NCBI GenBank assembly: GCA_004194705.1
Contig: SADC01000125.1
Span: forward strand, 124,001 to 188,000
DNA from: Ditylenchus dipsaci
Lineage: Eukaryota; Nematoda; Chromadorea; Rhabditida; Anguinidae
Reading direction: 5' to 3'
DNA: 64,000 bases
The position numbers and the translations under genes were made by a program. Below the pieces are notes generated by a model. It ran no database searches, had not been told where the DNA came from, and saw only the letters and a program-made list of their open reading frames with translations. Shown here one piece after another: positions 43,091 through 64,000 of the stretch; position 1 is the first letter of the stretch, and each line of letters begins with the position of its first letter.

Positions 43091-43096
43091 AAAATT

Positions 43097-46000
43097 TCAG
43101 TGAATGGAGCAAGGTTTTCTGCTTTTGAGCACAGAATCATGATCTCCATCACACAAGAACACTTGCACGTTACTGGACACTTGGCTCCAGCCATTGTCTT
43201 CATATTCCAAAAGCTTTGCTGGGTCGACATTACTTCTAAAACCTTTTTCACTATTGATATGTAATTATGCAAATTAAATTTGAAGGCCTATTTAGCACAA
43301 CTTTGAATTTTATCAAAAAATAGGACGATACGTAGAAATGCCAAGTTTTGGCGAAAAAGTGGTCAGTTTTTTGTGAAAAACAGCCCAGTTATTTTTTTTC
43401 TTCATTCAAAAAGGCTGTAATCTGCCCATTTTTGTGCAAACTACGAAGTTTTTGTGAAAAAATACCCAGTTTTGTGGAAATGTACCCAGTTTTATGAAAG
43501 GGTGCCCAGTTTTGGGAAAATGTGCCCACTTCTGGATATACCCCGTTACATTAATGACTCCTGTTAAACGACTCCTTGAATTGGAGGAGGGCTAAAATTA
43601 GAGGGGGGGGCTTAAATTATTTAACCCAGGTACGTAACTCAAAATTTTGAAAAAAAGTACACTTGGCCAAAAAAGTACAATTTGGTCATTTTTCGTCAAA
43701 AAGTGCCATTTTATCCAACCTTATTGACTTATGAACACCAAAAAATTTTTTTGACTTAAAACTTCAAAAATAAAAAAGATTTTGGGTCCCAAAAAAGTAC
43801 AAATCTTTTTAAAAAGTATAGTTACGTTCCCTGATTTACCCCATTCATCCCAACAAAAGTCACCAAACAAAGACCTTTCATTCCGGAACTGAAATACAAT
43901 GACTGAAATAAAAACAATTTCAGAAATCAAAATTTATCATTGTGAGAAACATCATAATTGTAAACTTTTTAATTTTTGTCATTGTTGGCTATATATTATT
44001 GTTGGCCCGGAATTTTTTTGAGTCAAAATTACAGGGGGGGTTAAATTAGAGTAAATACGGTAGTTGGAAAAACGCCATTTTCTTATCCATAACCCTCGTT
44101 TGGCCATACGATTCCGTAATCAATCGAAATTGTTTGGCAAATCATAAACATCACCCTTTAGAGGGCCCTTATATAGTTGGTCCCAGCACCCTTTAAATAA
44201 ACAGTCAGTACGAGACCAGTCATATACAAGCAGTCGAACCAAGACCAGTGTTTTCATAACTAACACCTAACTCCTAACACTAACTTACGTTAGGCTAACA
44301 CTTAACCTTACACTAACACTAACATGTAGAGTTAGTGTAAGGTTAGTTTAAAAATCACTGTTAGTGTTAGTGTAAGGTTAGTTTAAAGCTAACTGTTAGC
44401 TTAATTTAGTGTTAGACTAACATTAACTATGTTAGTTTAAGACTAACTTCCTAACAGTTAGCCTATTAAGCCTTAAACTAATTAAGCCTTAAATAATTAA
44501 GCCTTAAACTAACATAGTTAGTGTTAGTCTAACACTAAATTAAGCTAACAGTTAGCTTTAAACTAACCTAAACTAACATTTAAACTAACCTTACACTAAC
44601 TCTAACATGTTAGTGTTAGTGTAGGCTTAGTTTAAAATGTTAGTGTTAGAGTAAGGTTAGTGTTAGCCTAACACTAACATAGTTAGTGTTAGTTATGAAA
44701 ACACTGACAAGACATAAATCTTTTTATTTTCGCAAAAAAATTCTTGCTAAAGTTTTAAGAATTTTAGCACTCATTTTGTCAAAACGTCGTCTGACCAATT
44801 GAGAACCTTGCCATACAGATCCGATAACTTGAAGTTGCGAATCTCTTCCATTTGTTCTAAAAGAACAGATAACCTAACAATAAAAAAACTGACGTCTCAT
44901 TGCACAATAATTAAATATATAGAGCTAGGACTTATACGTAGAGTTTGGTGCATAGTCGTATAGTATTTTCGAATAGACTACTGGTATATGACTAGTCTCG
45001 TACTGAGTATCCATCAGAGGGGAATACCACCGCGTTACACTGCAAATTAAGGCGGGGACCAGCAGTTTTCAACTCAAATCTAATATTTATGGCCTTACAC
45101 TGCTTTTAAAAAGTAGGCCGAAAACTTTCTTCGGATCAGGTAGAACGCTTATAAAAAGCAGTCGAGAGAAAAGAAACTGCTGGTCCCCGCATTAATTGCG
45201 TAACGCGCTGGTATGCCCCTTTAAAGAACCATACTTGTTGATGCAAATGAGAATTTGACAAATTTTAATGCGCGCGGGACACTTCTCTTTCGTCTCACAC
45301 TCTACTCTTTGAAGTTATTTAGAGCGACCCAAAAGAGTACAGTGAGAAACGAAAGAGAAGTATCCCGTGCGCATTTGAATTTATCAAGTTATCTTTTGCA
45401 TCAAGAAATATGGTCCGTGAAAGGGTTGCTGGGAGCAACCATATAAGTGCCCTATAAAGATTATAAATCAAAGTATAATTATCTACCTGACAGAATTCTT
45501 TAGGGCGGAATCGCCCAAAAGCTTGGCCTTGAACAGGCAAATGCCAATGTTTGAAGCGTCACTGAAAATGTGCTCTTTCAACATTTGAGCCAGCTTCATT
45601 GCCCCTTGTAAAAGCTTCTGCTTGTTTGGCATCAACTCAAATTGTTTCTGGAAAATTAGTACTCTTTTTAAAATCGCGACGCAGCCAAAATTTTATACCA
45701 CTAGATATGTGCGCACCACATCTAAGTCAAGTGATTCAGTTCCAAGAACCCTGTAACCATTTTTTTAATTTTAAAATATATATTATTGAAATCTAAACCT
45801 ACCATGAATCAATGCAAACTACTGTTTCAATGAAAAGTTTTTTTGTGACGTAAAGAAAAACAGCCATTTCTCTAGCCAGAATCCCGCCTAAAGAATGGCC
45901 CAACAGCAAAAATGGTTGCGAGTCAGAATGCTCAATGACCTGCAACAGAATACCTTGAAAATACTGTTAAAAAATTGTTCATCGATTTTATAAAATATTC

Positions 46001-49000
46001 TGTGTAAAAAATGCAGGCTAGAAATTTCATCAGTTAGTGAAAAGTTTTTACTGAAAAACCTACTTGTTCGGCATAAAATTGTGCCAATTCAGCTAATGTA
46101 TTGCATGGAATATCTGGATGGTAGTGAATGCCATAGACATTGCAACTGGCTGGTAACACCTGAAGCATGGAGTAGTAGGGATAGACTGTGCCTCCAATGG
46201 GATGGATGCAATAGATGTTGCGGCTGCGGGTTGGGTCACTGCTCTGATCAGCTTCTCTCAGCACACCTATCACACACCTACTCTTGTTCTTGGTGGTCTG
46301 TATGGGTGAAGTAGAAAAAGCTTTGAATGGTAGTCTCTTTTCGATTAGTCGCACTTGCTGGCCAAGTGAAGGGTTCTAAAGAGATCGTCGAACGATACTT
46401 CTAGTGTGATTTCCTTAATTTGAAGTTTAGAATGTTTTGAAAATGCCTCAAACGAGTAAAAATTGCAAAAAATGTGATGTTCATGACGAGGTCTGTCCAA
46501 TATATAACCAGTTAGGATAAACATGACGCATACCGTATATCATCTAATAAGGCCCCATCTTTTATCGAGACCCCACCTTCTAATAAGGCCCCACCTCTTG
46601 AGAGGTGTTGAAAAATTAGGGCCCACCTCAAATAAGGCCTAACAAGGCCAAAAAGACATCTTCTAATAAGGCCTCACCTCCAAAGAGTCCCCAGGAAACG
46701 AGAATTTCACTTCTCTTTCGTCTCTCACTGTACTCTTTTAAGTCGCTCGAAATAACTCCAAAGAGTAGAGTGCGTTACGAAAGAAAAGTGTCCCGCGCGC
46801 ATTTGAATTTGCCAAATTTTCAATTGCATCAACAAGTATGTTTTTTAACCATTTTGAATGTGACCCTATTTGTCTGCTGTTTTTTTTGAAATAACATCTC
46901 AAAAAGTTCTTTCCTGCCTAGGGTTAGACATTTTTTTTTCATATTTAAAATTTTTCTTTGGTCTTTCATAGATTTTCATCTTTAGAGCAAGTCCTGGCCA
47001 ATCTAGTGATGTAAACATTCCTTATGTTATGTTTCACACACATAAGCATAAGTTAAAACGAGTTTTTGGGAAGCCATAGCTTTTGAAATTTAACTCCAAA
47101 ATATTTATTCGCATCGAACTAGAAAAACAACTAAATTACCCTTTTTCTTGAAATAATTCAAAATACATCTCTTTAAAACTTTGTGATTGAACCACTGTTT
47201 TAAGCCAAAAATTGTAAATTTAGCAAAAAATAATGTTAGTATTCAAACAGTCCTGTTTTTTGCAAAAGGTTTTTATCTGACTTTTTTTCATAAAACTATT
47301 ACTAACCGTGAATTCGTCAGCTACCGATTTTTTAAGCATGAGCATAGAAAGGGAATGGCCTCCACAAGCAAAGAAATTATCTTCAGGTTTGAGATCATGA
47401 TTGGGTTTAAGTGGTAACTGTTTTCTCCACAGCTTTTTCACTCGTTCTAATAATAATTGGATGCTACAATTATCTTCATCCAACACGATTGCTGTATGTT
47501 GGTGCTCTTGTTGTTGGACGGCCAAGTATTGCACAAACAACTGGCTTAATTTGTTTTTATCTACTTTTCCCACCAAATTTAAGGGGATGTTATCCAATGG
47601 CATAACAATGCAGGAACCATGTGAGAAGGCAGTCGGGTCTGAAACTAGGTATTTTAAAACTCTTAACTGTATCCAATAGCTAAACCTTCAATGTAGTCTT
47701 CAGGGTGTGAACTTTCTCTTCCCATGTCCCATAGTTTGGTGTAAGCATAACTAGGAAGGCAACCAATTCAATAGTGCAACTCTCTTCTTGGTTAACCTTC
47801 TCTGTAGTCACGAATGCTTTACTTAAAACGTGGTTTGTATAGTGACATGACTGATTTTGGTACTTATCCCGTTTGGCACCCCCATCGAATTTTGGTCGAA
47901 AAAAATTTCAAATTTTTTTATCCTGAATATTGAGCTCGATCGATCCCATTTTTTGGACTATGGTTAACACATGTCAAAGACCCACTGGAGTTTATACTGT
48001 ACCTGCAAATCAGTTAGCTAGTTACGGTGAACACCCCGCACTCAAGTTCCGTGTACGTGCACATTACAGGCAGCTGACAAATGGTAATTTTTGATCAATT
48101 TCAACTAGTTATATTCTTAATCATACCCACCTGTGGTTCCTTCTTTTATAAGGGCCATTGCCGTAGAGCACTTTTTTCGTAACTTTAGCTCCTTGAGTGG
48201 AACACTAACAACATGGGGACTACCGTATTTTCTCTATTAAGGAACCCCTCTCTAATAATGACCCCCCCCCCCCTCTTATTTTTTGACTAGAATTTTAGAG
48301 TTAAGGCCATTTTTGATTGAAAATTTTGAGATTTTTCGGGGGTTGAAAAATAATGAACCCGGGTGCGTTAATAAAGAAAAATACGGTATGTTCATTTTGT
48401 GTTTTTCACCGTAAATCTAATCAAAAAATGGCTTATTTAGGCTGAAAAAAATAGAAAAAATTTCGACTTAAATGGGGGGCGGGACTGTTTTTCTCTATAG
48501 ACCACATCGAACCACGGTCTCATTTTTTTTTCAGCTAGACTATCCCGGCTATATATATGGGCTATTTATAGCAGCTTAATTCATTCCTGTATTTGTTCAA
48601 ATAAACATAATAGGCATATACTCTTATAAAATTTATGAATCACATGCCGCTAATGCTACGGCTTCGGCTATACCTCTTCTAATAATTGTATTATAAAAGA
48701 GAGCGGGAAACAATGGAAACATTCACGTATAATCCCAGCAAAAATTCGGGTGGATATGAGGCCATATTTAACCTTAGTTAATCTAACCTTAGTTTTTTCG
48801 GTGGCACTAGCGTTAAAAAATCCTATTGATCGTTATGTAGCAACAAACTCGTGAAGTTGGACTATAGTTATAACCATACTTCGTGACAAACCTCAAATCG
48901 TCTTGAAAAAGCTTTCGAAATTCATCAGTGATAACACTAGCCACTTCCAGACCATCTACTCTGATGCCTCTGACCTTTAATTGGGCATCTCTACGACCAA

Positions 49001-52000
49001 TGAAACTGTAATAGTTAGCCAGGCAATGAATAATTTTTAACACAAAATGATAAATATGACAGTTTACCGCAAAGGGCCTTTGGGAGAAATCCTTCTGACT
49101 AAGTCCCCAGTTCTGTAGATTCTTTTTGTAATATTATAGGTGGCATCGCAAATTGTGCCGAAATCGGATAACTGAGACAAAGTGTTGGGTGTGGATGTTT
49201 GACCAATATAGCCTCGAGCTACTCCTTGCCCCACTATGCACAGTTCACCCATTGCTAAAGAGTCTGAAATGGGAAAATTTAAAGAAGTGATAAATCAAAG
49301 AATTTACCCAAGTGTAGTGGTAAAATTCCCAATGATCCTTCTTGTTTAATATGCTTTCTGAGCAAGATATTAGCAAGGTCGACTCATTGCAACAGGGATA
49401 TCCTGTAAGATAAAAGATAATTTCTGCCGAGGATGGTTTCTGTCGGTTTTTTCTGAACAGAATAGGTTTTTAGTTTCACTGGTTTGGCCGGGAATTCGGT
49501 GGTACCCATGGGCGTAGCCAGGGGGGGATCGAGGGGGCTATAGCCAACCCCCCCCCCCCCCCGCCGTCAAATTAAAAAAAAATTGTTATTAAAAAACACT
49601 ATAAACTCGAAAACGGTGTAGGGAAAATGACTTCTCGGGGGGCTTTAACCACCCCCCCTTCCCTCGTCAGATTTTTTTGGCTATGCCTCTGGTGCTACCT
49701 ACCGTATCAATCTGAATATATTATAAAATTTATTCTTTTAATTCCAACCTCAAGTCAAACGGTACAAAAATTCGGGCTGCAATTCCACCTTTTCAGGATA
49801 AACCTTACGCAACTCTTTCGTCCCGCAAAAACTATCAAGATCTACCTATCACACTGCCATCATGAGCTTCCTCTTGGTTACTGCTATTCCAATGATGACA
49901 CAAACTCCAAACAGTGGTCTCTGTAGGCCCATATATTTCAGTCACTTTGATGCCATTTAAGAAGCATTTGTGCATGGAAGAGGTCAGTGGGTTTCTCCGC
50001 CAACAATCACATGCTCTGTCACTCTGGCACATAACTGTTGAGATCGGCCTGGCCGAGCGAGTTAAACACAGCTGAAGTCAGGAACAAATGAGTGAAGTTC
50101 TTTGTATTTTGGTTGATAGGCTCAAATATGTGCATCAGTTGGTCCATTTGCACAAGACATCCTCCACTTACCTACAGTTTATTTATTTATCAACTTAGAC
50201 TTGCACCATCAATTACCCCAAAATGACCATTTTGCGTTTTTTTTAAATTAAAAATGGCAAATAAATTGCATTTTCGCCCTAAAAGGCAATTTTTGCCTTT
50301 AGGGCAAGTTGCTTTTTTCGGGCAAATTGAACCTGAAAAAGGGATACATCATCGAAATATTTTTTCTGCAGCAAATCCAAAAACCGGATGAGTCAAGAAA
50401 TTTGAATTTCAAATCAGTTCGAAATTTACTCAAAATATCAGTCCGAAACTATGTTTATTTTTCGAAAAAACAGGTTTCGGCATTTGGACACAAGTATTTG
50501 ATGATGCTTAGATTGTCAAAGTACACATCAATACGGAACCGAGATTTTTTTGCACAGCATACCGTATTCACTCTAATAGCTCCACTGGTGGAGTTGTTTT
50601 TCGAATATCTCCCAGGGGTAGAGTTATTAGAGATGGTGGAGCTATTGGAGATAAAGGAGCTATTAGAGTAAACATGGCATGGTGACCGTGTTAGAGGGAA
50701 AAATTTGTGGCTTTTTGAAATCATGCAAATTTCGGCTGTATATGTGTTCGCACCCCTCCCAGAAAAAACTTATTTTTTTCACCCATTTTAATTTATAGAA
50801 AGGCACAATTCTCATCCATAACTATCTCCACTTACCAAAGCTCCGAAAATATTGAATACGCTGACATCGAAAGTGCATTTGACTGAATGAGCCAACATGC
50901 AACCTGCATTTAGACCTAAGTCCCTAATAGCTCCATTCAGAAAGGCCATCACATTGCCATGCTCAACACACACTCCTTTTGGGGTGCCAGTGGATCCAGA
51001 TGTGAAGCAGACATAGGCCAGGTCACTATCTTCGTTCTTGTATTGGGTAACAAAAGTGGAGTCTTCAACATCATTGTCTACTTTTCCAACATCAATCACC
51101 CTAATTTCCTTCAGTTCTCCAGTACCCACTACGACGTCTATTTCTAATTGTTGCAAAACCATGTATATCCTACTCAATGGGGCGTCCACATCCAGCACAC
51201 AATAAGCTGCGCCCGTCTCCAATATAGCTAACATCCATTCCACAGCAAAGTTATTGTCCAGATATATCGGGACCACAGTGTTGGGGATAATAAATTACCG
51301 GTCAATATAAAATAATTTTTGTTTAAAAAGGCAGCATTCCTCTGTATTTTTCGGATAAGTTGGCTGTAGGTGATTGGATTGGATGTTTTATTTGCCTTGG
51401 AAATTGTAGTATGGCTGTGTGAGTGGGGGTGAGGTGAGCCTGCTGATGGATGGCCTGCATTAGACCAGTTTGGATAGGCAAAGCAAGTTCGGGCCCCGAG
51501 TGGATGGGAAACGATGAGGACGTTTGGTCTCGGAAGATGTGAGTGAGAAGATCTGGCGCACAAAATCTTGAGAAAAAACTCTTTATGGTATCTTCAGCAA
51601 ATTTGGCTGAATTATAGTCCAGAGTGACTTGGATATGGTGACTGCTGACATTTATTTCGTCGATGGTGCACGAGAACTCAAATATCTGATTGGAAGAGAT
51701 TTGGTGGATGGATGCGGATGTGTTAGGGCCGAGGTTAATGTCTGGAACTCAAGGTTATGACGGTAGTTGAAGAAAGTCTGAAATAATAATTTGAATCAAT
51801 TTAAAAAATTGTACAACTTAAACTTCCAATTTCATAATCCAGAAAATGATAGAAAAAATTTGGGCAGCGACAATTGGGGAAATTTCAATTTTAAAATAAC
51901 CCCCCCCCCCCAACAATGTTTAAAAAGTTGAATTCATAGTAATTTACAAAAATAAAAAATGAATTTGAATTTTAGTTTGACCCTAACTATCGAGCTGAAT

Positions 52001-55000
52001 TTTTGGAAGTTTCACACCATGTCAATCCGGATGCTTAGTAGTTTTGTCAAAACTTTTAAAGCCACACAAATAGTCGAACCTGAAACACTGGATTCAATCC
52101 CTGTTCCACATGTGGTCTAGCCCTCATCATGGCAACTGCTCTGTGGAATGGCACATCTTCAAATTTCTTTGCTTGTTGCGCCCTTTCTTTACCTCTTCCA
52201 CAGCCTCTCTAGACCCGCTCCATAGTTGACTACTCTCCAATGCCACGATCACATTATTCAAAAAATATCCAATTAAATCGGCTAATTGGTGGTGCTCTCG
52301 GCCAGACACTGCGCACCCTATCACTAGTTCATTGCAATCCTCCCTGTTTTCTCTCCACACGTCCAGGCATCTCGAAAATGCAGTCAAGAATAGGGTGTAC
52401 TGTGAGGCACACATTTCACCACACGCTTCATTCAACTTAGCCACCAATTCCACCGGCACTTGAAAAACAAAACTAGAGGTTGCTTCTTCCTTTGTTGAAC
52501 AATTTACAAAATCTGGGATCAGTCTGGTGCCATATGGCGGTAAGCTGTCGAGTATTTGAGCCAATTTTCTGCACTTTTCTTGCTGAGGGCTATCTTTACA
52601 AGCGTCGTTTTGTAAACTGAGCTCACAATTGTCCATCCCTAAGCTTTCCTCCGACCTTTTCCCATTCCACTGCTGTCTGTTCCAAAGCGCATAATCTGCG
52701 TAACAAATATGTCCATCTAATCTTTTATTTTTCTTAATTCCACCATATAATCCACAATATCCATTGTAAAGGTCAGAAAATTGTTTGGCAAACACACTCA
52801 TAGACCAGCCGTCAGTGATTATATGGTGATGGTTCAACAACATATTTTTACCATTAAATATGACTCTAAATGATGGATGGCACAAATCGAATTCATAATT
52901 TAGCTCTTCTTGGTATTTTCGTTGCTCTTTATTATTTCTCTCTTTATCTGTCCAATCCAGTGAATAGTATGCTTCAGTCAAGGAAACCACCTGTTGGTAC
53001 GGTTGATTGAAGTGCTTGTCTATGCCAAACACTGTTCTCAGTGAGTTCTGCTGGGCAATCAGTGCTAGCAAAGCATACTGCAATCCATCTTTATTGATTG
53101 GCCCACTAAATCAATGTTGAAAAGGATGTTGTATTTGCTCTTGGGCTCCATATTCCACAACAGCCACATCTGTTCTTGGGCCAAACTTAGTGGAATAGGA
53201 TTGAGATGGGTCGAAACAGGAATTTCGAGCGATTCCGTACCCATTCCATCAACTGTCTTTCGGGATAACTCAGCGAAAAAATCTTCAAAGCGAGGATTTT
53301 CAAACAGCAAGTTTACTGGAATTTTCCACGCCGGTTATTTTTTCTAGCCGCCAAGTCAATTGAATTCCGTTAAGAGAGTTTCCTCCCAGCTGGAAAAAAT
53401 CGTCGGAATCAGAGATTTGTGTTGTAGAGCCTGAAAGTGAGTCCAGCCACACTTGTTTTACTGTTTGTTTGAGGTCTTTTGAGGTGAGAATTGGGAAATT
53501 TTTCAAGGTTTTTTCAGTATGGATATTTGAAGCACTTTTTTGCCTGTGCATCAGAAATTGTCTGATTTTAGGGGATTGGAAGAAGTCACTGCGAGCACTC
53601 CTTGTTGCAAACTTTTGTCCGACAAAATATTCTGTATAAATTTCCTGGCTTGTTTTTCACGGATTGAGTGCTTCAAAACATCTTCATCTTTGCTCAAAGA
53701 CGAATTTGTAAACATTTTACTAGCTCTCCAAGCTGGCCATTGGATGCTCACCAGTCTGTTGACTCCTTGAAAACTGGGTCTACAGTTGTTTTCTGTGGAT
53801 TGCAGCTGAGCTAGACTATCAAGAAAGAGGTTGGCAGCAGCATAATCTGAATTTCCCTGCAACCCATTGACAGCTGTCAATGAAGAGTTGACAACTAAAC
53901 AGTCCACTGTGAGGCCAGACTTGGCTATTGCATTCAGCAAGTTGGTGGCACCTAAATAGTAAAGCATACTGAAATAAGTATAGGAAAGCCAACAAACCTT
54001 TCATTTTTTCGGCCAAAACCATTTGAGCTTGCTGGTCAGACTTGAGAAGAGTGTTAGAAGTTGGAGTTCCTGCGCAATGCACCATCCAATTACACTGTGA
54101 ATAGCTTTTGCCACACTCTCCAGCAAGGCATCCATAGCTATAGCGTTGCAAATATCCACATCTCTGCATTCACAGTCACCGTATAGTTTTTTAAACTCTT
54201 GAGATTGCTGTGTGCAACTCCTTGAAGCAAATATCAAATGGATGGTGGGATTTAATTTTCGGATAGCAGAGGCGAATGCTTGCCCAATACTGCCACTACC
54301 ACCTAGAAGAAGACAACAACTCTTGTGATCTGCTGAATCACTGGGCATGATAACATCTAAAACAAAAATTCAGGAGCACTTTACCCCACCACTCAATTAA
54401 ACTTGACCCCAGCAGCAAATCAGCTTGGGGACCAAGGTAAAATGTTTTCCACTTTTAATACCAATAATTTTTTTGCATAAAAATAATAAAAAGTGAAAAT
54501 ATATATTGTCTTTGAGACCTGTTTTTTGAGATTTTAAAATAAAAATTTCAAATGAAATTTTTTCGCCTTGGTCCCCCAAGCTTATTTACTGGTGTAAGTG
54601 AAGGTTAATTGAGTGGTGGGGGTGTTAAAGAATTAATTTTAATTTTTCGCAACGGATTTGACTTTAACCAATCAACCAGGAACAAGTAAACAAAAGCCCC
54701 CAACAAAAATTCAATCGGGCAAACTTCTTTCTTGCCGTAAAAATACTTTTTTTACCGCAAAATTTCATGCCGTAAAAATACTTTTTTTTGCTGCTAAAAT
54801 ATTTTTGTGCCGTTACGCATATTTTATTTTGAGGTGAAAATTGTTTCCCAGCAAGAAAAAATTTGCGGCAAAAAAGTATTTCTACGGCAAAAGAAGTATT
54901 TTTACGGCAAGAAAAAGGTTTGCTCAATTCAATTCAGGGCAATTATTTACCACTTGAAATGTTGTCTTTTTTTCTCGTAGAACAGCTCCAGCAAAATGCC

Positions 55001-58000
55001 CTTTTCCAGTCGAAATAGATTGAAATTTGTTGGACTGTTGTCTTTTGCAGCAATTACATTGAAGAAGTTAGGCAAAAACTTTGTACTAGCGGACTGTAGC
55101 ATAGTGAATTTAGCATTTGGATTAAGATTGCACATCTCTGACAATGGCCCCAAAGCTACCGAAGCGGTAAGTGGTCCAATGCAGACCATCCAGATGGGTT
55201 GACCACTTATTCCAAAAGTCTTTGTCAGGCTTTGCAAAGTAAAAAAAGTCTGTTCTGTAGTGGTTGCCAATTCTTTTTTGCATCTTCAAAAAGGCAAATA
55301 ATAATTTTGGACTCGAAATTTTCGTTTTTAATTGATCAAAGCTGTGATCATCCAAAGATAATTTGAAATTCGTTGGCGAATCTTGCTCAAAAGTGGAGAC
55401 TTCAGACCCTTGATCAACTATATTAACATAATTGATAAGATGTGAACAGTAGAGTGTAGAGGGCAGGCTGGATGTTGTTGAATTTGTTATGCACAGAATA
55501 TGTCGGTTAGATGTGTAGGTGGTTGGGTAACTTGCTAAATTGGCTACAAATTTCCATTTTTGTAAGAAAAGCTTTTGTTCCAATCTTTTGTGGTCGGTTG
55601 GAATTGAGATGAGGTGGTGGAATAGTCGATTTGCTGGAAGTGGTAGCCAGGAAGGTTGTAATCTATGTTAAATTTGTGGCCATATAGCTGCCTGAAGTGA
55701 ATGTCGCAGCCGAGCTCCCATAACCTTGCCAAACAGTCAAATAGAGGTGCTTTTGTAGGGTTACTAAGAGACTCTGATCTGAAAAATTTACAATTACACA
55801 ATTACAAAAATTAAGGAGCGAACCAGCAAATTTTTTGAACTATTCCATTTTAACTTGGTTTACGTTAAATCTATTATTGATGACCTTATACTACTTTTAA
55901 AAATAGGCAGAAAAGTTTAAAAAATCAGGATGAGAACGCGTAAAAAGATCTTATTGAAAGAAAAAAATGCTGGTCCGCCTTTTCTCCGTGTTGCGCACGG
56001 CATGCCCCTTTAAAGTAATTTTTTTTTGGATTTTTTGGGTTAGCGTAAGCCATCTAAAAATTTTGCTAACCAGAATTCCTAAACTATATTTTACCTCAAT
56101 ACGACTGGTAAAATAAGAATGTTTGCTGTTTTCGGGAGAAACTATCAAAAAGCACTGGCATAATTAATAAAGAGTTGGACTCAGCTTTGGAACAAATTTT
56201 AGGGGTGTCAGGTTATCGGGACTTGACTGTTACCGTATCACTTTAAAAGACGGGCATGCCCGTTTATTTTTCAACCCTCAAAAATTTAGAAAAATTTGGG
56301 TCGATTTTGAGATTTTGGGTGCTCAACTAAAATCTAAAAATGATATCAGAAGAGCTCGTGGTAAATAAGAAAACGCAATAAAGAGATTTGCAAAAAAAAT
56401 TTTGAGCTGAGATATGGATCCTTGAGGGTGCCCGCTTATTAAAGGGTGCCCTTTTATTAGAGTGAATACGGTATTTACCAAAATCACCTTGAATACATTG
56501 TGTTTAGAACTGAAATTTCTGGTGTCTTTAGATCCAAGCTTTTCTGCTGAATAAGATTTTTGAGCATTCCTGGTGGTCCGATCTCCACAATCAGTGCACA
56601 ATCTTCCTTAATAAGGGTCTTAAGACTAAGATCCATTCGCACTGGTTGAAGTAAATGTTGCGTTATGTATTCTGCATTGAGCTTATTCACTGATAAAAAG
56701 TCGCCGTCCACCTAAAACGAATGTTTTTGATATACAGTCGAAACTCGATATAACATACGCTCGATATAACATACGATTTTTCGTTTTTTGGCAAATACTT
56801 TTTATTTTTTACTTTTTTAATTCTGAGGATACCCACCCCTTAAATTTTGTGCTTGACATTTCTGTCTTTTTAGAATTTTTCGTTCCCGAAAAAAATTTTG
56901 AGAAAATACCCAAAAGTGAATATTTCGAGTTTCGGGCATTTTCTCAAAATTTTTTTCGGGAACGAAAAATTCTAAAAAGACAGAAATGTCAAGCACAAAA
57001 TTTTAAGGGGGGTGGGTATCCTCAGAATTAAAAAATAAATAAAAAATAAAAAGTATTTGCCAAAAAACGAAAATCGTATGTTATATCGAGCGTATGTTAT
57101 ATAGAGTTTCGACTGTATGAAAATTGTATAAAATTTCAAACATTGGAAATAATGCTGGTGTTTGGTGGGCTGAAGGATAACAGCTGTGCCTTTGAATAGA
57201 ACGCTTCTCGAATCGGTTCAAGAAAAGAGGAGTGGAATCCGTGGAAAGTTTTGAGTAAGCGGTGCTCAACACCTGCCTCTTTTAGCTAAATCTTTGAAAT
57301 TAAAAAAATGAATTGAGATTTGTGGTATAGTCTAGAGTAAAAAGACCTGTTTAGCAAAAGATTCCACACTTTTCGGCAGTCCCACAAATACACGAATAGT
57401 AGATGATAGTTTAGCCTAAATCCGACATTTTTATAGCAATAAGTCTCTTTCTTTAAAAACTAACTGAAAGTTCCAAATCTTGTGGAGCACAATCAATTTC
57501 TCCATGAACCACTATCATTTTGGCATCCTTGGTTTTGGATACAAGTTCTCCTCTTGTTTCCAGGAATTGCAAGCATGTTTTTGCTTCCAGAACACCTGCC
57601 TCTACTAGTGCTGAGTACTCTCCCACACTGTGACCAAACACTACTTTTGGGTTCGAAATTCCTGCCTATAGAATTTTTATATTGTATGAAAACGAGGTAG
57701 CTAGTGCAAGCCTGCCAACCTCTTTTAAAAATATTGTTATGGCTTGGCAAATGACAAACAAAGCACATTGAGTATGCTTGGCATTATTGATTTTGTCAGT
57801 TGCCAAAATGTCAAGCATTTGTGCGGCACCACCCGAAAAATATGAGCAAAGTTCATGGAGAGATTTTTTCAACCAATCAGAATATTGTATTTCTGCTGAT
57901 AGCCTGATTGAAAATGAATTTGGAGATAACAGAAAGAAAGGGTGTAACGGTATTTTGCAACAAATTCTCGGAATTTCGGAGCTTATTTTTGTTATAATTT

Positions 58001-61000
58001 TTTTCTTAAAATTTTTCACCCTTTTTCAAAGATAATAACACCATCATGTATTCCTACGATTCTAGTTTCTAGTGACGTGTCATTTATTGCATCATCTCTG
58101 AAAAAGTGGAACAAAAAATGAAAATATGAACCAAATTATTTTTTACTTTTACTTACTTTTTTTTACTTTTTACTTTCATTTACTTTTACTTTTTCGCTCT
58201 ACTTTTTTTCAGAGATGATGCAATAAATGACACGTCACTAGAAACTAGAATCGTAGGGCTACATGATGGTGTTATTATCTTTGAAAAAAGGTAAAAAATT
58301 TTAAGAAAAAAAATTAAAACAAAAATTTGCTGCAAAATTCCGAGAATTAGCTGCGAAATTCCGTTACACCCGAAAAAAATCAAACTCACATTCCAGGGTA
58401 TTGCACTCCCTGAGGACAGAAGAAAAATGCTGAAATAAAATAAAAATAATATATTCTGCATTAAATTTAAGAAAATACCGAAATTATTTTTCTTAAGATT
58501 TGCAGAATCCACAATATTTTGTATGTCAACATTTTCTATCTTCAATATGGCTTCAGAAATAGTTCTTGCTGTAATTGCTGTACGATAGCGATGCCAGTCT
58601 CTGTGATTCTAAATTAATCCTAGTAACTTTCCAGCAGACTATTTTTTGATCGGTCTAAATCAGTCAAAAATTCTGATTTTTTTTGGATGCCCTGAAGTTA
58701 GTTTCAATAAGTTCAGTTTCGAATTTTAGTTTGCAATGTTTGTAGGGTTGCACGATAGGCAACGCAAAATCAAAAATAATACTAAAAAATAACATGAGAG
58801 GTAGGAAAAAGACAGTCAAGCAGACCTGTGTACGGGCCGGGCTGTGTTTTTTTTAAATTACGCTCCATTCTGACCGGACCCAATAAAAAAACTGCGAGTC
58901 GGCCGAGAAAGTTGAGTTCAATAACTCATCGTAATTTTTCCACAAAAATGAACTCCAACCTGCAGTGTGCTGGCAACTTGTTTAAACAATTTGCCGTCAT
59001 CAGTCACACCACCTTGTGAACATTCATTTGAAGCAGACCGCATATATTTGGCTATATTATGGCACTGTTGCACACATGCTTGCGGAGTTGTTCCACTTAT
59101 GGGAAGAATAAAATAATCTCCGGTGATCAACTTAGATTCCCTCTGCGAACCCGAATATTTTTTATGGATAGACACACTACTGCTCAAGCCTTGCATCAGC
59201 ACCATTGAAGCTGAGAAAACACTAGAAATTAGATCAAAATACAACCATAAAGACGAACCATTAGTGCCACCAATGCCGAAATTGTTGATTGCCACACAAA
59301 CAGGCATATTACTACTTGAAATAATTGGGTCTGCGCAATTTCCTGTGTTGATTTGTAGATGGTCACAAAATTTGTGACCTGCACCTTTTCCAACTGATTC
59401 ACCATGGAGTTGGGGAGGAATAGTTAATGTTTGCAGTATTTTTATGCACTTTGCTACGGAAGCCATGCCAGATGCAGCGAAACAATGCCCGATGTTTGCT
59501 TTGACGGAGCCGACCGGAAGTTTTTGATGTTGCTGACCAAATACACTTGAAACCGCCTACATAAAAAAACCTTGTGACAACAATGAAAACTCAAAATTAA
59601 CTTACTTTCAGCTCAATTTCATCTAAAATATTAATTTTTATAGTCAAATATCCAGATAAAGTGAAAATTAGAGAGTACAATTCTAAAAAAAAGTCTACCA
59701 TACAAAGCCAAGTAAAAATAGGATCTCGTGATTGATATAAAAAATATTATTTGTGAAAGGATACGAGTAAGGGCCGGACTAGCAATGCAGGTATTGATGC
59801 AGGTATTAGTATTGCTTCTAATAGAATGGCACATTCCCTCTCTTATCCCTAGTTCAAAATTGTTTTTTGCTCTCGTTTTTTGACATATTTTTGAGAATGA
59901 CCATGAGACAAGTTACCACTTAAATAGTGACCAGTTACTTCAAAAAGATTTTCTTTAAAAAAAGACTCTGAATTAACGGGGGGGGGGGTTGTGTCGCTTT
60001 GATAAGAGAATACGGTACTATGAAAATACCGTATTTTCTTTAATTATAGACCCGTCTATAATTATGGACCCGTATCTAATTACAGACCCCCTCCCCTCGA
60101 GGGTAGCTGATAAAAATTACAGACCTGTCTCTAATTATGGTAAACATTCGAGGGGGGGGGGTTGAAAAATTATAGACCCGCGTCTACAATTAGAAAAAAT
60201 ACAGTAAATTAAACGAATATATTTGACCTCCAACAACAGTTCCAGTGGCATGACACTCCAAATATGCGATGGACAAATGGTCATCACCATCTTGCCTCAT
60301 AAAGTTTTGTAAGGCATTGTTCATGACTGCCTGTTGTCCTTTCACACTTGGAGACATAAAGTTGGATTTGTTAGCTGCAATATAATGTCCGTAAAAAATG
60401 AAAAAATGCTAGAAGCAATCACCTCCGTCATTGTTTACAGAAATTGCTTTTATAACGGCGAGTATTTGGTCTCCGTCCGACAAAGCCTTCTTGGCATCCT
60501 TGAGAACAACTGCAGAACCTTGAAAATAGAAAAATAGAATTTTATTCCAAAATAGTAAGAATTAAGATTGGCGACTCGACCCTTCGTTTTCGACTTTTTC
60601 AGTCGAAAGTCGAAAATTTCCGATTTTCGACTTCTGGTTGACTCTGCGAGTCGAAATTTTCGACTTCAGTCGACTTTTCGACCATTCGGGTCGAAGAATC
60701 CGGTCCTTTGCCAACCCTATTTAAAATGTTTGTTTTTATAGAAAAGTTAATTTTAAACAATTTAGCAAAAACAGGGGTGCAAGAGCTTACAACAACTCCC
60801 ACGAATGATACCTCCCTCTGGAGATGAGAAAAATGGCCGGCAGTGCTCATTAGACGACAACACCTAGAATGTCAAAATAATTTTTTTCGAAGTCAAATTC
60901 TTAAGTGACTACCATCCCTCGCTCATAGTGATGGCCAATGTCTTGAGGGTGGACTAAAAAGGAGACAGTGGTAAGTTTATGGAAGTTGATGCAAGCAGAC

Positions 61001-64000
61001 CTAAGTGAACAGCACCAGCAATGCACAATTCTGAACTCAACAGAAATTCTCCATCTGAATCACTTATAAATATTTTTTACCAGCTTCCCGTTAAAAATCG
61101 CATTGCAAGCTTGCTGGATTGTCAGAAGAGAGCTGGAGCAAGCAGAATAAACAGATGCACAAGGTCCTTTTAGATCAAGCATATGGCTTCTATGAGAAAA
61201 AAATAACAATTTCGTTCGAATGGTGAAATAAAAACACACGTCCACATGGCTATGAAATCCTTCTGGTTTTTTGGTACATATTCAACAGACTACCTCTGTT
61301 TTCATCATCCGATTTTGCGGGAACATAAGCAAATGGCTCAGCTCCAACAAAACAACCAATTCTAAGAAATACATTAAAAGTTTAAAGTGTAATATCGACA
61401 ACCAAGCGATGAATTTACTTCAAAGCATTCCTGAAAATTCAAATTTCGATGAAGGAAAGCTGATGATGGCTCTATATGTGTACGAGGGTACAACCAAAAA
61501 AATATTCCTTGCTCCCGTTTTTTTTGTCAAACTTTTTTATCTCAAGATATTGTTATTTTTTTAGACTTTAGACTTGGGCAAGGGTAGGCCAGCGTATGCT
61601 AGGACAGACTCAAACATGCTTTTATAAGAAAATATGTTTGAGCGCGTCCCAAAATACGCTGGCTTACCCTTGCCTTAGCCTAATTCAGGTTGGGCGACCA
61701 AGGCAAAAAAATTTTCCTTTTTATACCAAAACTACCGTATTTCCTCTAATTAGCCGACATGTCGGTTTATTTTTCAACCCTTCAAAAGTCGTGAAAATTT
61801 TGGGTCGATCTCGACATTTTCGGGTGAAGATCCAAAATCGAAAAAGCGGAATCGATAGAGCTCGTAGGAGCTAAGAAAACGCAATTAACAGCGATGTAAA
61901 TTTTTTTCTGTGGACTGAGATACGGACCCTCAAAGTAGGGGTGTCGGTTTATTAGAGGGTGTCGGCTAATTAGAGGAAATACGGTAATTTTTTGCTTAAG
62001 ATTATTTAAAAAATTTTATAAATAGTTTCTGAGACTTGAACAACAAGGAAGAAAACAACAAGGAAGACCAAGGCATGTTTTTAGGGTGTATCCTCGAACA
62101 CACATAGAGTCCTGATGATCAAAATATAATTTACCTTTCTCGAATATATCCACTCTTTTCCAATGCCGCATAAGCATGCTCAAGAAATTTACGAGTTTGT
62201 AGGTCCAACGATTTTAGATCTTCAGTGCTTAGTTGGAAAAGGTTTGGGTCGAAAGTTTCTGAGTTAGGTACAACACCAGCAACCTTAATATGCGAAATAA
62301 ATGGAATGGAATTCATTTAGCATGGCATACAGGGACAAATGTGGTTTCCTCCTCATCATTGTCACTCTCCGATTCAATAGGGGAATTATGGTAAAAAATT
62401 CTTTCTTTTTCATAATGCCTTCCCATAACTCATCAATGGAATTGCAGCCAGAAAATGCACCGGACATAGAAATGATTGCGCTGAAATATTCGGTGAATGA
62501 ATTTTAGTTAGTAAAATGACAAAGACCCGACTAGCACAAGTCCTGACCAGTGTTGTCCATTTGGCTCGCGCGAGCCAAACGAAAGACCTAAAATCGCATG
62601 TCCTAGCGAGCCATATGGGTTCGAGCCATATGGCTGGCCTTTTTTTATATATGCGAGCCAATTGGCTCGCATACTTGTTTTTTTTAAGCGAGCCGAACGC
62701 GAGCCAAAACCATACGAGCCATTAGTATCGCGAACCATTTGGCTCGCAAACAAAAACAAATGGTTCGGCTCGCGCTTTTTATGTGAGTTTTAAACGTGAA
62801 TTTATTGTTAAAAACAAATAAAAGGACAAATAAAGTGTTACTAGCTTAATATTTGCAAAAATCAGTCAAAAAATTGAAAAAAAATGAAAAATAAACTAGA
62901 TTTAGGCTTTATTTCAGCAAAAAATATTTTCCGCGAGCCGAACCATACGCTTATTATAGATGCGAGCCAAATGGCTCGCGAGCTAACAAGCTCTTGTCAC
63001 TTTGTTTTTTAACTTAGCGAGCCATGTGGCCCGCCAAGTTAGCTATTTGGCGAGTGAGCAGCTCGCGTCCTCTCAAAAGAGCCTCTCAAAGTCCAATCAA
63101 AGGGACGCGAGCTGCTCGCTCGCAAACGAGCCAAACGCACAACACTGGTCCTGTATAAAACAAAAAATCAGAAAAAGTTGCAAATATTGAGGTCTTAGGT
63201 AAATTTGATGGTTTGGATTGAGAATCAGCCCCATTTCGCATTTCTCTCTGCTGTTGGTTTTTGGCTTATGGTTAGGGTTTGCAGCCTCCGGGGCAATCTC
63301 CCGTGCCCCCGTGCAATTTTTCGATATTTTTTTTTCTAGAAATCCACTTGATCTCCAACCAACCTCTGTTGTCCGCCCTGTGTAAAATTTTCGAAATTTT
63401 CCAGAAAATTTGAAAATAAAGTAAGGAAAACATGTTCGAGCTTACGCTAACCTTTTCTGCGCCTATTCTTACGCTAAACGAACAATAGAGAGAATCAAAA
63501 CAAAAAATGGGACCGATCCTTAGCCAGAGCTCATTCGATAAAAGACCTTAGTTTGAATTAAATAGATTGAGTCAAAATAAATTTATGGCACACTCTGACC
63601 AAGTAATAATTAAACTTGAAAACTTAAAATAGAAAAAAACTTACATGTCATTTTCACCAATGTGTTTCTCGTACGCTCTCAACTCCTTTACATTAGCAGC
63701 TGTCTCATCGAAAATTTGGCTATCACCGCCAACATTTTCTCTTGCAGTACTGTTAAGTTATCATGGTCCTCGCCATGCTTTTCACCAAAAACACCATTGC
63801 TATATTCTTCTTGCTCCACTATCCTTTTAGCAATACCTTGTTTGAGCTTATCCTGCACCAGTTCTGCAATTGGTCAACATTTACATACTCATACATCTCT
63901 GCTGCACTCAATTCGATTTCAAAATTCTCAGCCATGCAGGTTCTGAGCTGTTCAATTTGTTGAGAATCCACTCCCAGTGACATCAGTCCAGCATTTGTGT
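43097..64000 (-). CDS. pks-1: Hybrid polyketide synthase / non-ribosomal peptide synthetase, 5' end beyond window
   Basis: Multimodular megasynthase that extends a thioester-bound chain with a malonyl unit, reduces it, condenses it with an amino acid and releases the product. Domain order on the minus strand: ACP (right edge), KS, AT, structural KR half, KR, ACP/T, C, A, T, TE; the last exon (about 43254-43097) carries the thioesterase His and the stop. More than 25 exons with ordinary GT...AG introns show it is a resident animal gene, not bacterial contamination. Catalytic residues are intact in every domain (see domain entries). Frame slips, mostly in homopolymers, occur near 63870, 62435, 62320, 61315, 53335, 53108, 52150 and others; they look like base errors. 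The symbol follows the nematode PKS-1/NRPS-1 hybrid pathway by architecture only; it could be another paralogue. Introns carry numerous MITEs. Confidence 0.9.
44246..44706. mobile_element. hAT-like MITE, word AACACTAAC, in TE intron
   Basis: Starts CAGTGTTTTCATAACTAACA and ends TGTTAGTTATGAAAACACTG-like (inverted). Nearly the whole body is CTAACACTAAC/GTTAGTGTTAG and derivatives. Flanks ACCAAGAC and ACAAGACA share seven bases with a one-base offset. Confidence 0.75.
45020..45226. repeat. piggyBac-like MITE relative
   Basis: GGGGAATACCACCGCGTTAC at the left, GTAACGCGCTGGTATGCCCC at the right, followed by TTTAA. Shares GGCGGGGACCAGCAGTTTT with the 28258 copy. Confidence 0.65.
45262..45390. repeat. 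ACACTTCTCTTTCGTCT foldback MITE, copy 2
   Basis: ATGCGCGCGGGACACTTCTC mirrored by GAGAAGTATCCCGTGCGCAT. Confidence 0.8.
46531..46695. repeat. TACCGTATTT MITE, copy word AATAAGGCCCCACCT, right end lost
   Basis: TACCGTATATCATCTAATAA then GGCCCC; AATAAGGCCC occurs five times, with the GTTGAAAAATTAGGGCCC core. The right end runs into the adjacent ACACTTCTC repeat. Confidence 0.75.
46697..46818. repeat. ACACTTCTCTTTCGTCT foldback MITE, copy 3
   Basis: TTCACTTCTCTTTCGTCTCT mirrored by TACGAAAGAAAAGTGTCCCG; left end slightly truncated. Confidence 0.75.
47310..47520 (-). other. Synthase: thiolation (T/PCP) domain
   Basis: LLERVKKLWRKQLPL...PEDNFFACGGHSLSMLMLKK; phosphopantetheine Ser in GGHS (about 47360). 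Exon ends at a GTTAGT donor near 47307. Confidence 0.93.
48221..48388. repeat. TACCGTATTT MITE in A-domain intron
   Basis: TACCGTATTTTCTCTATTAA at the left, TTAATAAAGAAAAATACGGT then A at the right; GGGGGTTGAAAAATAATGAA is the internal core. Confidence 0.85.
49503..49693. repeat. Foldback repeat with GCGTAGCCAGGGGGG ends, in A-domain intron
   Basis: GGGCGTAGCCAGGGGGGGAT at the left mirrored by TTTTTTTGGCTATGCCTCTG at the right; GGGGGGCTATAGCC/GGGGGCTTTAACC words inside. Confidence 0.6.
50560..50678. repeat. TACCGTATTT MITE, copy word AATAGCTCCAC
   Basis: TACCGTATTCACTCTAATAG at the left; the word recurs as GGTGGAG(CT/TT)ATT four times; right end TATTAGAGTAAACATGGCA. Confidence 0.85.
51590..53330 (-). 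other. Synthase: condensation (C) domain
   Basis: Forms the amide between polyketide acyl chain and amino acid. PIPLSLAQEQMWLLWNMEP (C1), NSLRTVFG (C2), NHHHIITDGWSM with intact HHxxxDG (about 52820), YADYALWNRQQW (C4), GREHHQLADLIGYFLNNV (C5), KKFEDVPFHRAVAMM and PHVEQGLNPVFQ (C6-C7). The longest uninterrupted frame in the window (318 codons) lies here. The dropped T near 53107 (NID then FSGPINKDG) is a clear homopolymer slip. The C-terminal subdomain continues in an exon near 51780-51570. Confidence 0.93.
53340..53540 (-). other. Synthase: carrier domain between PKS and NRPS parts
   Basis: KQTVKQVWLDSLSG...DDFFQLGGNSLNGIQLTWRL with the phosphopantetheine Ser in GGNS (about 53383). Reads more like a peptidyl-type carrier (GGNSL) than the GVDS type at the right edge. 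A one-base insertion near 53327 breaks the frame before the condensation domain. Confidence 0.92.
53570..54348 (-). other. Synthase: ketoreductase (KR) catalytic domain
   Basis: NADPH-dependent reduction of the beta-keto group. CLLLGGSGSIGQAFASAIRK is the nucleotide-binding loop (about 54310). Then IHSV...WMVHCAGTPTSNTLL and the active region VNSSLTAVNGLQGNSDYAAA + NLFLDSLAQ (about 53900-53815) with Ser, Tyr and Asn in catalytic spacing, and VSIQWPAW near 53740. Frame slip near 54095. Confidence 0.9.
54383..54629. repeat. Foldback repeat in KR intron
   Basis: TACCCCACCACTCAATTAAA at the left, GGTTAATTGAGTGGTGGGGG at the right; inner CTTGGGGACCAAGGTAAAA mirrored by CGCCTTGGTCCCCCAAG. Confidence 0.8.
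54690..54935. repeat. Word-array element, word TTGCCGTAAAAATAC
   Basis: GCCGTAAAAATACTTTTTT and its complement (AAGTATTTTTACGGCAAGAA) occur at least six times in both halves of the intron between the KR and its structural half. Confidence 0.65.
54950..55790 (-). other. Synthase: post-AT linker and non-catalytic KR structural half
   Basis: FDCLARLWELGCDIHF and NLPGYHFQQIDY are the usual post-AT linker. What follows has no dehydratase HxxxGxxxxP motif; instead KLFLQKWKFVANL, then LQSLTKTFGISGQPIWMVC look like the structural (Rossmann-like, cofactor-free) half of a ketoreductase. So the module appears to lack DH and ER. One frame slip near 55270 (KMQK). Confidence 0.65.
55812..56012. repeat. 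piggyBac-like MITE relative, left end truncated
   Basis: TTAAGGAGCGAACCAGCAAA at the left; GCACGGCATGCCCCT followed by TTAA at the right. Confidence 0.65.
56231..56473. repeat. TACCGTATTT MITE, copy word GACGGGCATGCCCG
   Basis: TACCGTATCACTTTAAAAGA then CGGGCATGCCCG; GGTGCCCGCTTATTAAAGGG then TGCCC near the right end, closing with AGAGTGAATACGGTA. In an AT-to-linker intron. Confidence 0.85.
56733..57117. repeat. pogo/Tigger-like foldback MITE, variable word CTCGATATAACATACG
   Basis: TACAGTCGAAACTCGATATA and TATAGAGTTTCGACTGTA are inverses; arms nearly perfect to the centre near 56925. In an AT intron. Confidence 0.92.
57940..58371. repeat. Foldback repeat with GGGTGTAACGG ends, in AT intron
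   Basis: GGGTGTAACGG at the left and CCGTTACACC at the right; both arms carry TGACGTGTCATTTATTGCAT or its complement around a TTTTACTTTTTAC spacer. Confidence 0.85.
58625..58915. other. Synthase intron with a possible hAT end
   Basis: CAGACCTGTGTACGGGCCGG near 58819 resembles the end and word of the 17000-17382 element, but I cannot find the opposite end. Confidence 0.35.
60027..60206. repeat. TACCGTATTT MITE, copy word AATTATAGACCCG
   Basis: TACCGTATTTTCTTTAATTA then TAGACCC; AATTATAGACCCG-like words occur seven times; right end AATTAGAAAAAATACAGTA. In a KS intron. Confidence 0.85.
60563..60719. mobile_element. Probable hAT-like MITE, word GTCGAAA
   Basis: TAAGATTGGCGACTCGACCC at the left and CCTTTGCCAACCCTA at the right are inverted at the tip; GTCGAAA/TTTCGAC fills the body. 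Target duplication not convincing. Confidence 0.55.
61570..61690. repeat. Small foldback repeat in KS intron
   Basis: TTGGGCAAGGGTAGGCCAGC mirrored by GCTGGCTTACCCTTGCCTTA. Confidence 0.7.
61733..61986. repeat. TACCGTATTT MITE, copy word TAGCCGACATGTCGG
   Basis: TACCGTATTTCCTCTAATTA then GCCGACATGTCGG; GGTGTCGG occurs twice near the right end, which closes CTAATTAGAGGAAATACGGT then A. In a KS intron. Confidence 0.92.
62548..63147. mobile_element. hAT-like MITE, word GAGCCAAATGGCTCG, 8-bp TSD (6/8)
   Basis: Starts CAGTGTTGTCCATTTGGCTC and ends GAGCCAAACGCACAACACTG (inverted). Flanks GTCCTGAC and GTCCTGTA. Palindromic GCGAGCCAAATGGCTCGC words recur more than a dozen times. It sits in the intron 5' of the first KS exon. 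Confidence 0.85.
63640..64000 (-). other. Synthase: upstream ACP (partial) and linker
   Basis: NAGLMSLGVDSQQIEQLRTC is the phosphopantetheine-site helix of an acyl carrier protein; Ser in GVDS is the attachment residue. The N-terminal part lies past the window edge. A charged linker follows (RAYEKHIGENDM at a GTAAG donor near 63645). An ACP directly before the KS means at least one earlier module or loading unit exists. Confidence 0.85.

What the first reader, a model, noticed from the sequence alone, without database searches (positions are those of the whole stretch)
43097..64000. Intact hybrid PKS-NRPS megasynthase in an animal (nematode-like) genome
The minus strand carries ACP-KS-AT-KR-T-C-A-T-TE in one intron-rich gene with every catalytic residue visible. 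Animal genes that join a polyketide module to an NRPS module are rare; the known nematode case is the PKS-1/NRPS-1 nemamide pathway. Introns every 100-300 nt and host repeats inside them argue for an old resident gene. The product cannot be named from this sequence.
Basis: partly seen in the sequence, partly recalled or inferred. Interest (0 to 1): 0.9.

Follow-up and report, generated by a model that had tools for sequence, protein, structure and literature searches.

The report
Nematode PKS-1 gene in Ditylenchus dipsaci
The stem-and-bulb nematode, a crop pest, carries the giant enzyme gene (PKS-1) that other roundworms use to start building nemamide, a starvation-survival molecule; the gene is a known nematode kind seen in a new species, and whether this copy works cannot be read from the error-prone assembly.

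Summary
The minus strand of 43.09-64.34 kb codes the back half of a PKS-NRPS gene: ACP-KS-AT-KR-PCP-C-A-PCP-TE. The gene runs past the window to about C125:224 kb, collinear with nematode PKS-1. It is not a new join: C. elegans PKS-1 itself ends in C-A-PCP-TE. Its three KS domains each sit in the matching nematode KS clade, sister to Panagrellus. The genome is Ditylenchus dipsaci: FAS matches that species best and assembly size fits the published PacBio-only assembly. A likely NRPS partner lies on another contig.

'Intact' is not supported. The exon model needs 50 frameshifts (20 at a stricter setting), with one or two in-frame stops. Most look like one-base consensus errors; decay is not excluded.

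Two differences: the AT that 8 of 9 compared nematode proteins carry after their second ACP is missing, as in Panagrellus; the NRPS seems to have an extra C-PCP before its TE, judged against published C. elegans residue numbers. Known kind, new species record.

The parts
43087..64000 (-). part of the pks-1 gene inside the window; the gene continues to the right to about C125:224 kb (window scale about 100 kb)
   Evidence: spliced alignment, collinear tblastn of nematode PKS-1
63867..64000 (-). ACP3, carrier Ser motif LGVDS at 63977-63963; its exon starts outside the window at 64339
   Evidence: Pfam PP-binding E 9.4e-6
58960..62480 (-). KS3: Cys motif 61146, His motifs 60258 and 59499
   Evidence: Ketoacyl-synt_C 4.2e-14, KS tree, motifs
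56488..57903 (-). AT2, the only AT found in the gene: GHSVGE 57635, GFHS 57240
   Evidence: AT profile on three minus frames, E 3e-30, 6e-9 and 4e-3; Acyl_transf_1 7.8e-5, below cut-off
53572..54332 (-). KR3, Tyr/Asn motif 53850-53830
   Evidence: Pfam KR 1.7e-9 and 1.2e-4, just below cut-off
53330..53480 (-). PCP1 (approximate), LGGNSL 53389-53372
   Evidence: motif and alignment
51730..53325 (-). C1 condensation domain, HHIITDG 52828-52808
   Evidence: Pfam Condensation 2e-25, C tree
48880..51660 (-). A1 adenylation domain (approximate ends), TSGSTGTPKG 51003-50974, YGPTE 49933-49919
   Evidence: Pfam AMP-binding 7.3e-22
47301..47463 (-). PCP2, CGGHSL 47366-47349
   Evidence: Pfam PP-binding 8.1e-7
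45487..46375 (-). TE, catalytic Ser motif GHSLGG 45900-45883
   Evidence: Thioesterase 7.1e-4, below cut-off; tblastn to nematode PKS-1 C-termini
43087..43235 (-). last TE exon, His motif GDHDS 43147-43133, after a 2.25 kb intron
   Evidence: tblastn, alignment
56732..57118 (.). palindromic (MITE-like) host repeat, within the 57141-56712 intron
   Evidence: matches on both strands of many contigs; 91 matches, 40 of 2007 candidates scored
57940..58379 (.). second palindromic host repeat, within the 58389-57904 intron

Best explanation
This is the 3' half of the Ditylenchus dipsaci orthologue of nematode pks-1, the first megasynthase of the nemamide pathway. Shown: a line with three KS domains that ends in a C-A-PCP module and a TE, orthologous KS by KS to other nematodes, on a native contig, with an NRPS gene elsewhere in the genome. 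Inferred from C. elegans genetics: the KS modules build a polyketide acid, the A and PCP of the last module are needed to finish it, the TE takes part in its release, and a separate ligase reloads it on the NRPS, which adds amino acids and closes a ring. Inferred here: with the upstream AT missing, AT2 or another malonyl transferase must charge the other ACPs. The confidence given is for the identity of the gene; that this copy works I put at about 0.75.
For: Collinear matches to residues 1116-7386 of 7502 of Dirofilaria PKS-1 (P0052). OWN KS1, KS2, KS3 are sister to Panagrellus KS1, KS2, KS3 (bootstrap/SH-aLRT 98/90, 98/94, 99/93), inside nematode clades with 100/100, 100/99, 100/100. C1 in the nematode C clade (SH-aLRT 100; that clade also took one long-branched NRPS C domain). 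The order of KS, KR, AT2, C, A and TE calls agrees with 9 nematode PKS-1 proteins, except that 8 of the 9 have one more AT, C. bovis has two more KS, and no KR3 was found in Panagrellus. The C-A-PCP-TE end is that of C. elegans PKS-1. Species: the 11 gap-free pieces (of 22) of D. dipsaci FAS are 94-100% identical, 8 of them at least 97%; 226.98 Mb in 1359 contigs against 227.23 Mb in 1394 scaffolds. NRPS on C1284.
Against: 50 frameshifts in the model, a rate several times that of FAS in the same assembly (4 in 7.9 kb). In the first search the best 29 of 102 rows by E-value are not named nematode proteins, because proteins with many C domains score high; identity is 27-33% for the nematode-type rows and 21-30% for the rest. 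The AT that 8 of 9 relatives have is absent. C. elegans PKS-1 itself was not among the listed hits, so identity to it rests on its published description and on C. bovis (P0208). No transcript or metabolite data.
Confidence: 0.93

Rival explanations
1. The gene is a decaying pseudogene: the species lost nemamide-type synthesis, as reported for root-knot and cyst nematodes, and the frameshifts are real. (Not exclusive of the PKS-1 identity.)
For: 50 frameshifts (20 strict) in the model, where four back-translated nematode PKS-1 proteins give 0, 1, 0, 0. FAS has only 4 in 7.9 kb, and four NRPS frames of 406-715 codons are open. PKS-NRPS is reported absent in root-knot and cyst nematodes. One frameshift, near 67.83 kb, is called in both the gene and its C32 partial duplicate. 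In the C32 copy 2 of 7 calls in the KS2 columns are of the added-base kind.
Against: All listed motifs are kept. 19 of 20 strict and 40 of 50 normal frameshifts shift the frame as a lost base would, and 4 of 4 in FAS. The gene and its C32 duplicate differ by 49 indel events against 84 substitutions, 45 of one base, 34 of them next to the same base, 15 in exons and 34 outside; a neighbouring stretch has 6 against 85. The assembly is PacBio-only with 537 of 982 BUSCO genes complete and no polishing step in the text. Exon divergence between the copies is below intron divergence, about 23/1680 against 61/2552, p 0.024.
Confidence: 0.2
2. The gene is a recent horizontal transfer or a contaminant contig.
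For: KS3 groups with KS domains of four PKS-NRPS hybrids (two named as bacterial, two unnamed) at a deep node (100/99).
Against: That node is shared by the nematode KS3 rows of the tree, 7 of 7. 42 introns in the window part, host repeats in two of them, even GC, and sister place to Panagrellus for all three KS.
Confidence: 0.02
3. It is a PKS-1 relative that makes something other than a nemamide, because the line has lost one AT and the partner NRPS has an extra C-PCP. (Not exclusive of the PKS-1 identity.)
For: No AT between ACP2 and DH or anywhere in 68.9-77.3 kb. NRPS order C-A-PCP-C-PCP-C-A-(PCP)-C-PCP-TE (one PCP by motif only, the one in brackets only guessed) against ACP7-A2-C3-C4-A3-TE2 as ordered by published residue numbers.
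Against: Panagrellus shows the same AT loss in an otherwise ordinary PKS-1. The product of this species is unknown. The NRPS could not be compared with any NRPS-1 sequence here.
Confidence: 0.3

Closest known systems
C. elegans PKS-1 (nemamide pathway; PMC8363725, introduction, discussion and parts of results read)
   Same: PKS line ending in C-A-PCP-TE, with C His, carrier Ser and TE Ser; nematode
   Different: compared by published description only; this gene has 3 KS and one AT found; product unknown
Panagrellus redivivus PKS-1 homologue (P0084, UniRef 'fatty acid synthase')
   Same: sister in all three KS clades; also lacks the AT between ACP2 and DH
   Different: 27% identity over the C exon
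Filarial and ascarid-type PKS-1 (P0031, P0036, P0040, P0052, P0055, P0057)
   Same: KS1-ACP-KR-ACP-KS2-KR-ACP-KS3-AT-KR-PCP-C-A-TE in order
   Different: they have a further AT after the second ACP (6 of 6)
Bdelloid rotifer NRPS-PKS hybrids (PMC10531068, abstract and passages)
   Same: animal genes that join PKS and NRPS domains
   Different: not compared by sequence here; numerous, 0 to 5 NRPS-PKS and 12 to 79 NRPS clusters in the four bdelloids listed

Membership tests
nematode PKS-1 | collinear line with several KS domains ending in KR-PCP-C-A-PCP-TE | tested here: met
nematode PKS-1 | each KS orthologous to the matching nematode KS | tested here: met
   3 of 3
nematode PKS-1 | C domain groups with nematode PKS-1 C domains | tested here: met
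   SH-aLRT 100; order inside the clade unresolved
nematode PKS-1 | AT after the second ACP (8 of 9 relatives; not defining, Panagrellus lacks it too) | tested here: not met
   the AT profile finds AT2 and nothing at 68.9-77.3 kb
nematode PKS-1 | open reading frame | tested here: inconclusive
   frameshifted in the assembly
nematode PKS-1 | expression in canal-associated neurons, nemamide product | not testable with these tools
   no expression or metabolite data
nematode NRPS-1 (gene at C1284:181-195 kb) | carrier domain, then C-A...C-A...TE | tested here: inconclusive
   four C, two A, TE and two PCP by Pfam, a third PCP by motif; apparent extra C-PCP before TE; a motif scan upstream printed no carrier motif; no NRPS-1 sequence in hand

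The most novel reading that the evidence does not exclude
Ditylenchus keeps a working two-enzyme nemamide-type pathway that is altered in both halves: a PKS line charged by a single AT acting across modules, and an NRPS with an added C-PCP that could lengthen the peptide. Nematode PKS-1 itself would be of mixed origin: KS3 from a bacterial PKS-NRPS line, KS1 and KS2 from another source.
Probability: 0.3. Interest if true: 0.6.

Novelty: new member of a known kind. Interest (0 to 1): 0.42.

Why it matters
PKS-NRPS genes are reported absent from root-knot and cyst nematodes. A plant parasite of the same infraorder (Tylenchomorpha) that still carries PKS-1 and an NRPS suggests the loss came after these lines split (inference), and that plant parasitism as such does not exclude the genes. 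The missing AT and the apparent extra C-PCP make a testable statement about which parts of the assembly line are dispensable. The KS test bears on a disagreement quoted in print, FAS origin of the PKS domains against bacterial kinship of the TE in the C. elegans gene: KS3 with FAS is rejected (p-AU 0.0009), KS1/KS2 with FAS is not (p-AU 0.39). The listings of my searches show no paper that by title or abstract describes this gene in Ditylenchus; two surveys do not name the genus in their main text. Their species tables are in supplements that could not be read, and the 2016 nemamide paper is not held, so an earlier listing is possible.

Tried and rejected
COX1 as a species marker: one weak six-frame match; the one frame of it that I translated held stops, and it was not pursued. 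Second haplotype of the gene: a DNA search with the C exon found only the gene itself. Genome-wide Pfam search for ATs: it listed four places and missed even AT2, so it says nothing about a lost AT. Rfam and tRNA scans: empty. The KS search with P0031 was crowded by bacterial proteins: 120 of 713 listed, C. bovis the one new named nematode.

Full report
What is there. The window is C125:124001-188000 of a 226,978,389 bp assembly in 1359 contigs. On the minus strand, a spliced alignment of a profile made from 13 of 15 nematode-type PKS-1 hits (two short ones dropped) places, from right to left: ACP3, KS3, AT2, KR3, PCP1, C, A, PCP2, TE, ending at 43,087. Outside the window, on the same scale, lie KR2 (about 65.2-64.4 kb), KS2 (68.9-66.6 kb), a DH (frame 76.08-75.60 kb, PS-DH 3.4e-5), ACP2 (76.7-76.4 kb), KR1 split by a 14.9 kb intron (92.2-77.3 kb), ACP1 (94.1 kb) and KS1 (99.9-96.5 kb). 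Pfam gave no hit for single exons of KR1 and KR2; they rest on the alignment and on a KR profile. Exons upstream of KS1 and between 69 and 75.6 kb are poorly supported, so the start of the gene is not known and some introns of the model there may be spurious.

What it is. Of the 102 proteins found with the C exon, 11 bear nematode names and 4 unnamed ones align as nematode PKS-1. By E-value the first 29 rows are others, mostly bacterial proteins with many C domains; by identity the 15 lead (27-33% against 21-30%). Pieces of the contig match them in order. In a careful tree of 44 KS rows (18 from 6 of 16 nematode-type proteins, 3 own, 6 FAS, 17 labelled bacterial by me, some of them unnamed), the three KS domains fall each in its own nematode clade, with Panagrellus as sister. 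A quick tree of 86 rows gives the same clades, with the Panagrellus pairing for KS2 and KS3 and KS1 unresolved. C. elegans PKS-1 also ends in an NRPS module and TE, needed for nemamide production (PMC8363725, introduction, discussion and parts of results read). So the hybrid is PKS-1.

Which animal. A FAS exon is 90% identical over 92% to the D. dipsaci record, the next named species reaching 71% among the 120 of 484 hits listed. Of 22 pieces of that record on C199, 11 align without gaps, at 94-100%, 8 of them at 97% or more. Assembly size and contig number agree with the published D. dipsaci assembly (PMC6929663, whole text read); the window's GC, 0.33-0.41 per 2 kb, fits its 37.5%.

Is it intact. 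The model has 50 frameshifts at the normal penalty and 20 at the strict one. The aligner does not invent them: four back-translated nematode proteins gave 0, 1, 0, 0. FAS in the same assembly has 4 in 7.9 kb, so the pks-1 region is several times worse. Three facts point to consensus error. First, direction: 19 of 20 strict and 40 of 50 normal calls shift the frame as a lost base would. Second, the partial duplicate on C32 (70316-66131, 95-97% identical) differs from the gene by 49 indel events and 84 substitutions, 45 of one base, in introns and exons, whereas an adjacent stretch has 6 and 85, and another copy of that same stretch has 47 and 97. Such load depends on the place in the assembly, not on the sequence. 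Third, one or two in-frame stops. Against this: one frameshift is called in both copies, 2 of 7 calls in the KS2 columns of the C32 copy are of the added-base kind, and the stop count is biased downward by the aligner. I put a working gene at about 0.75.

How it most likely works. Shown: the parts and their motifs. From published work on C. elegans: the PKS-1 TE is essential, PKAL-1 loads the polyketide on NRPS-1, and the A and PCP of the last PKS-1 module are needed while its C is partly dispensable. Inferred: the same in this species. The GFHS motif of AT2 suggests malonyl-CoA (recalled, from no call).

Differences. An AT profile finds AT2 but no AT in 68.9-77.3 kb, and none in the matching part of Panagrellus; only about 0.3 kb lies between the open frames that hold ACP2 and the DH. 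Of 9 nematode proteins scanned, 8 have an AT there and only Panagrellus lacks it. The NRPS on C1284 has four C domains (one split), two A domains, a TE and two PCPs by Pfam, a third PCP by motif. By residue numbers in PMC8363725, C. elegans NRPS-1 leaves no room for a C-PCP between A3 and TE2 (inference).

Origin. AU tests reject KS3 with FAS (p 0.0009) and KS1-KS3 as one clade (p 0.0005), but not KS1/KS2 with FAS (p 0.39). The groups were named after a first tree was seen, and the hybrid KS rows next to KS3 came from a C-domain search, so the p-values and the neighbour are to be taken with care.

Known or new. PKS-NRPS and NRPS homologues are reported in most nematodes, including Tylenchina, and not in Dorylaimia (PMC10531068, abstract and passages), and absent in root-knot and cyst nematodes (PMC11050029, section 2.1). 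This is a new species record of a known gene, with two architectural variations.

Noticed in passing
C32:27571-34479 (L020-L021): Partial duplicate of the pks-1 stretch 70316-66131, 95-97% identical, interrupted by 2.7 kb; the adjoining 70.3-72.8 kb segment is repeated several times on C32.
   Followed up: partly
C1284:181095-194912 (L036-L037): Four-C, two-A NRPS gene with PCPs and a terminal TE and long open frames; likely the NRPS-1 partner, with a C-PCP not expected from C. elegans residue numbers.
   Followed up: partly
window scale 76.4-76.1 kb (C125:200.1-200.4 kb): The AT that 8 of 9 relatives carry after ACP2 is missing here and in Panagrellus.
   Followed up: yes
nematode PKS-1 KS domains: KS3 groups with KS domains of PKS-NRPS hybrids, KS1 and KS2 with each other; a mixed origin.
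   Followed up: yes
P0208 (Caenorhabditis bovis PKS-1): Five KS domains, two of them long-branched, against three in 12 and two in 3 of the other 15 nematode-type proteins.
   Followed up: no
C199:39.5-73.3 kb: FAS gene model with introns of 10.2 and 5.3 kb and four frameshifts, all in its 3' half.
   Followed up: partly
C1284:192853-193941: The terminal C domain of the NRPS falls in the nematode PKS-1 C clade, on a very long branch (3.67), so the place is unsure.
   Followed up: no
C125:233568-234023: Ionotropic glutamate receptor exon (Lig_chan 9.5e-31) upstream of pks-1.
   Followed up: no
C16:27.6-35.0 kb: Another KS-type gene that reads like a mitochondrial or type II ketoacyl synthase (label from reading the frames).
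   Followed up: no
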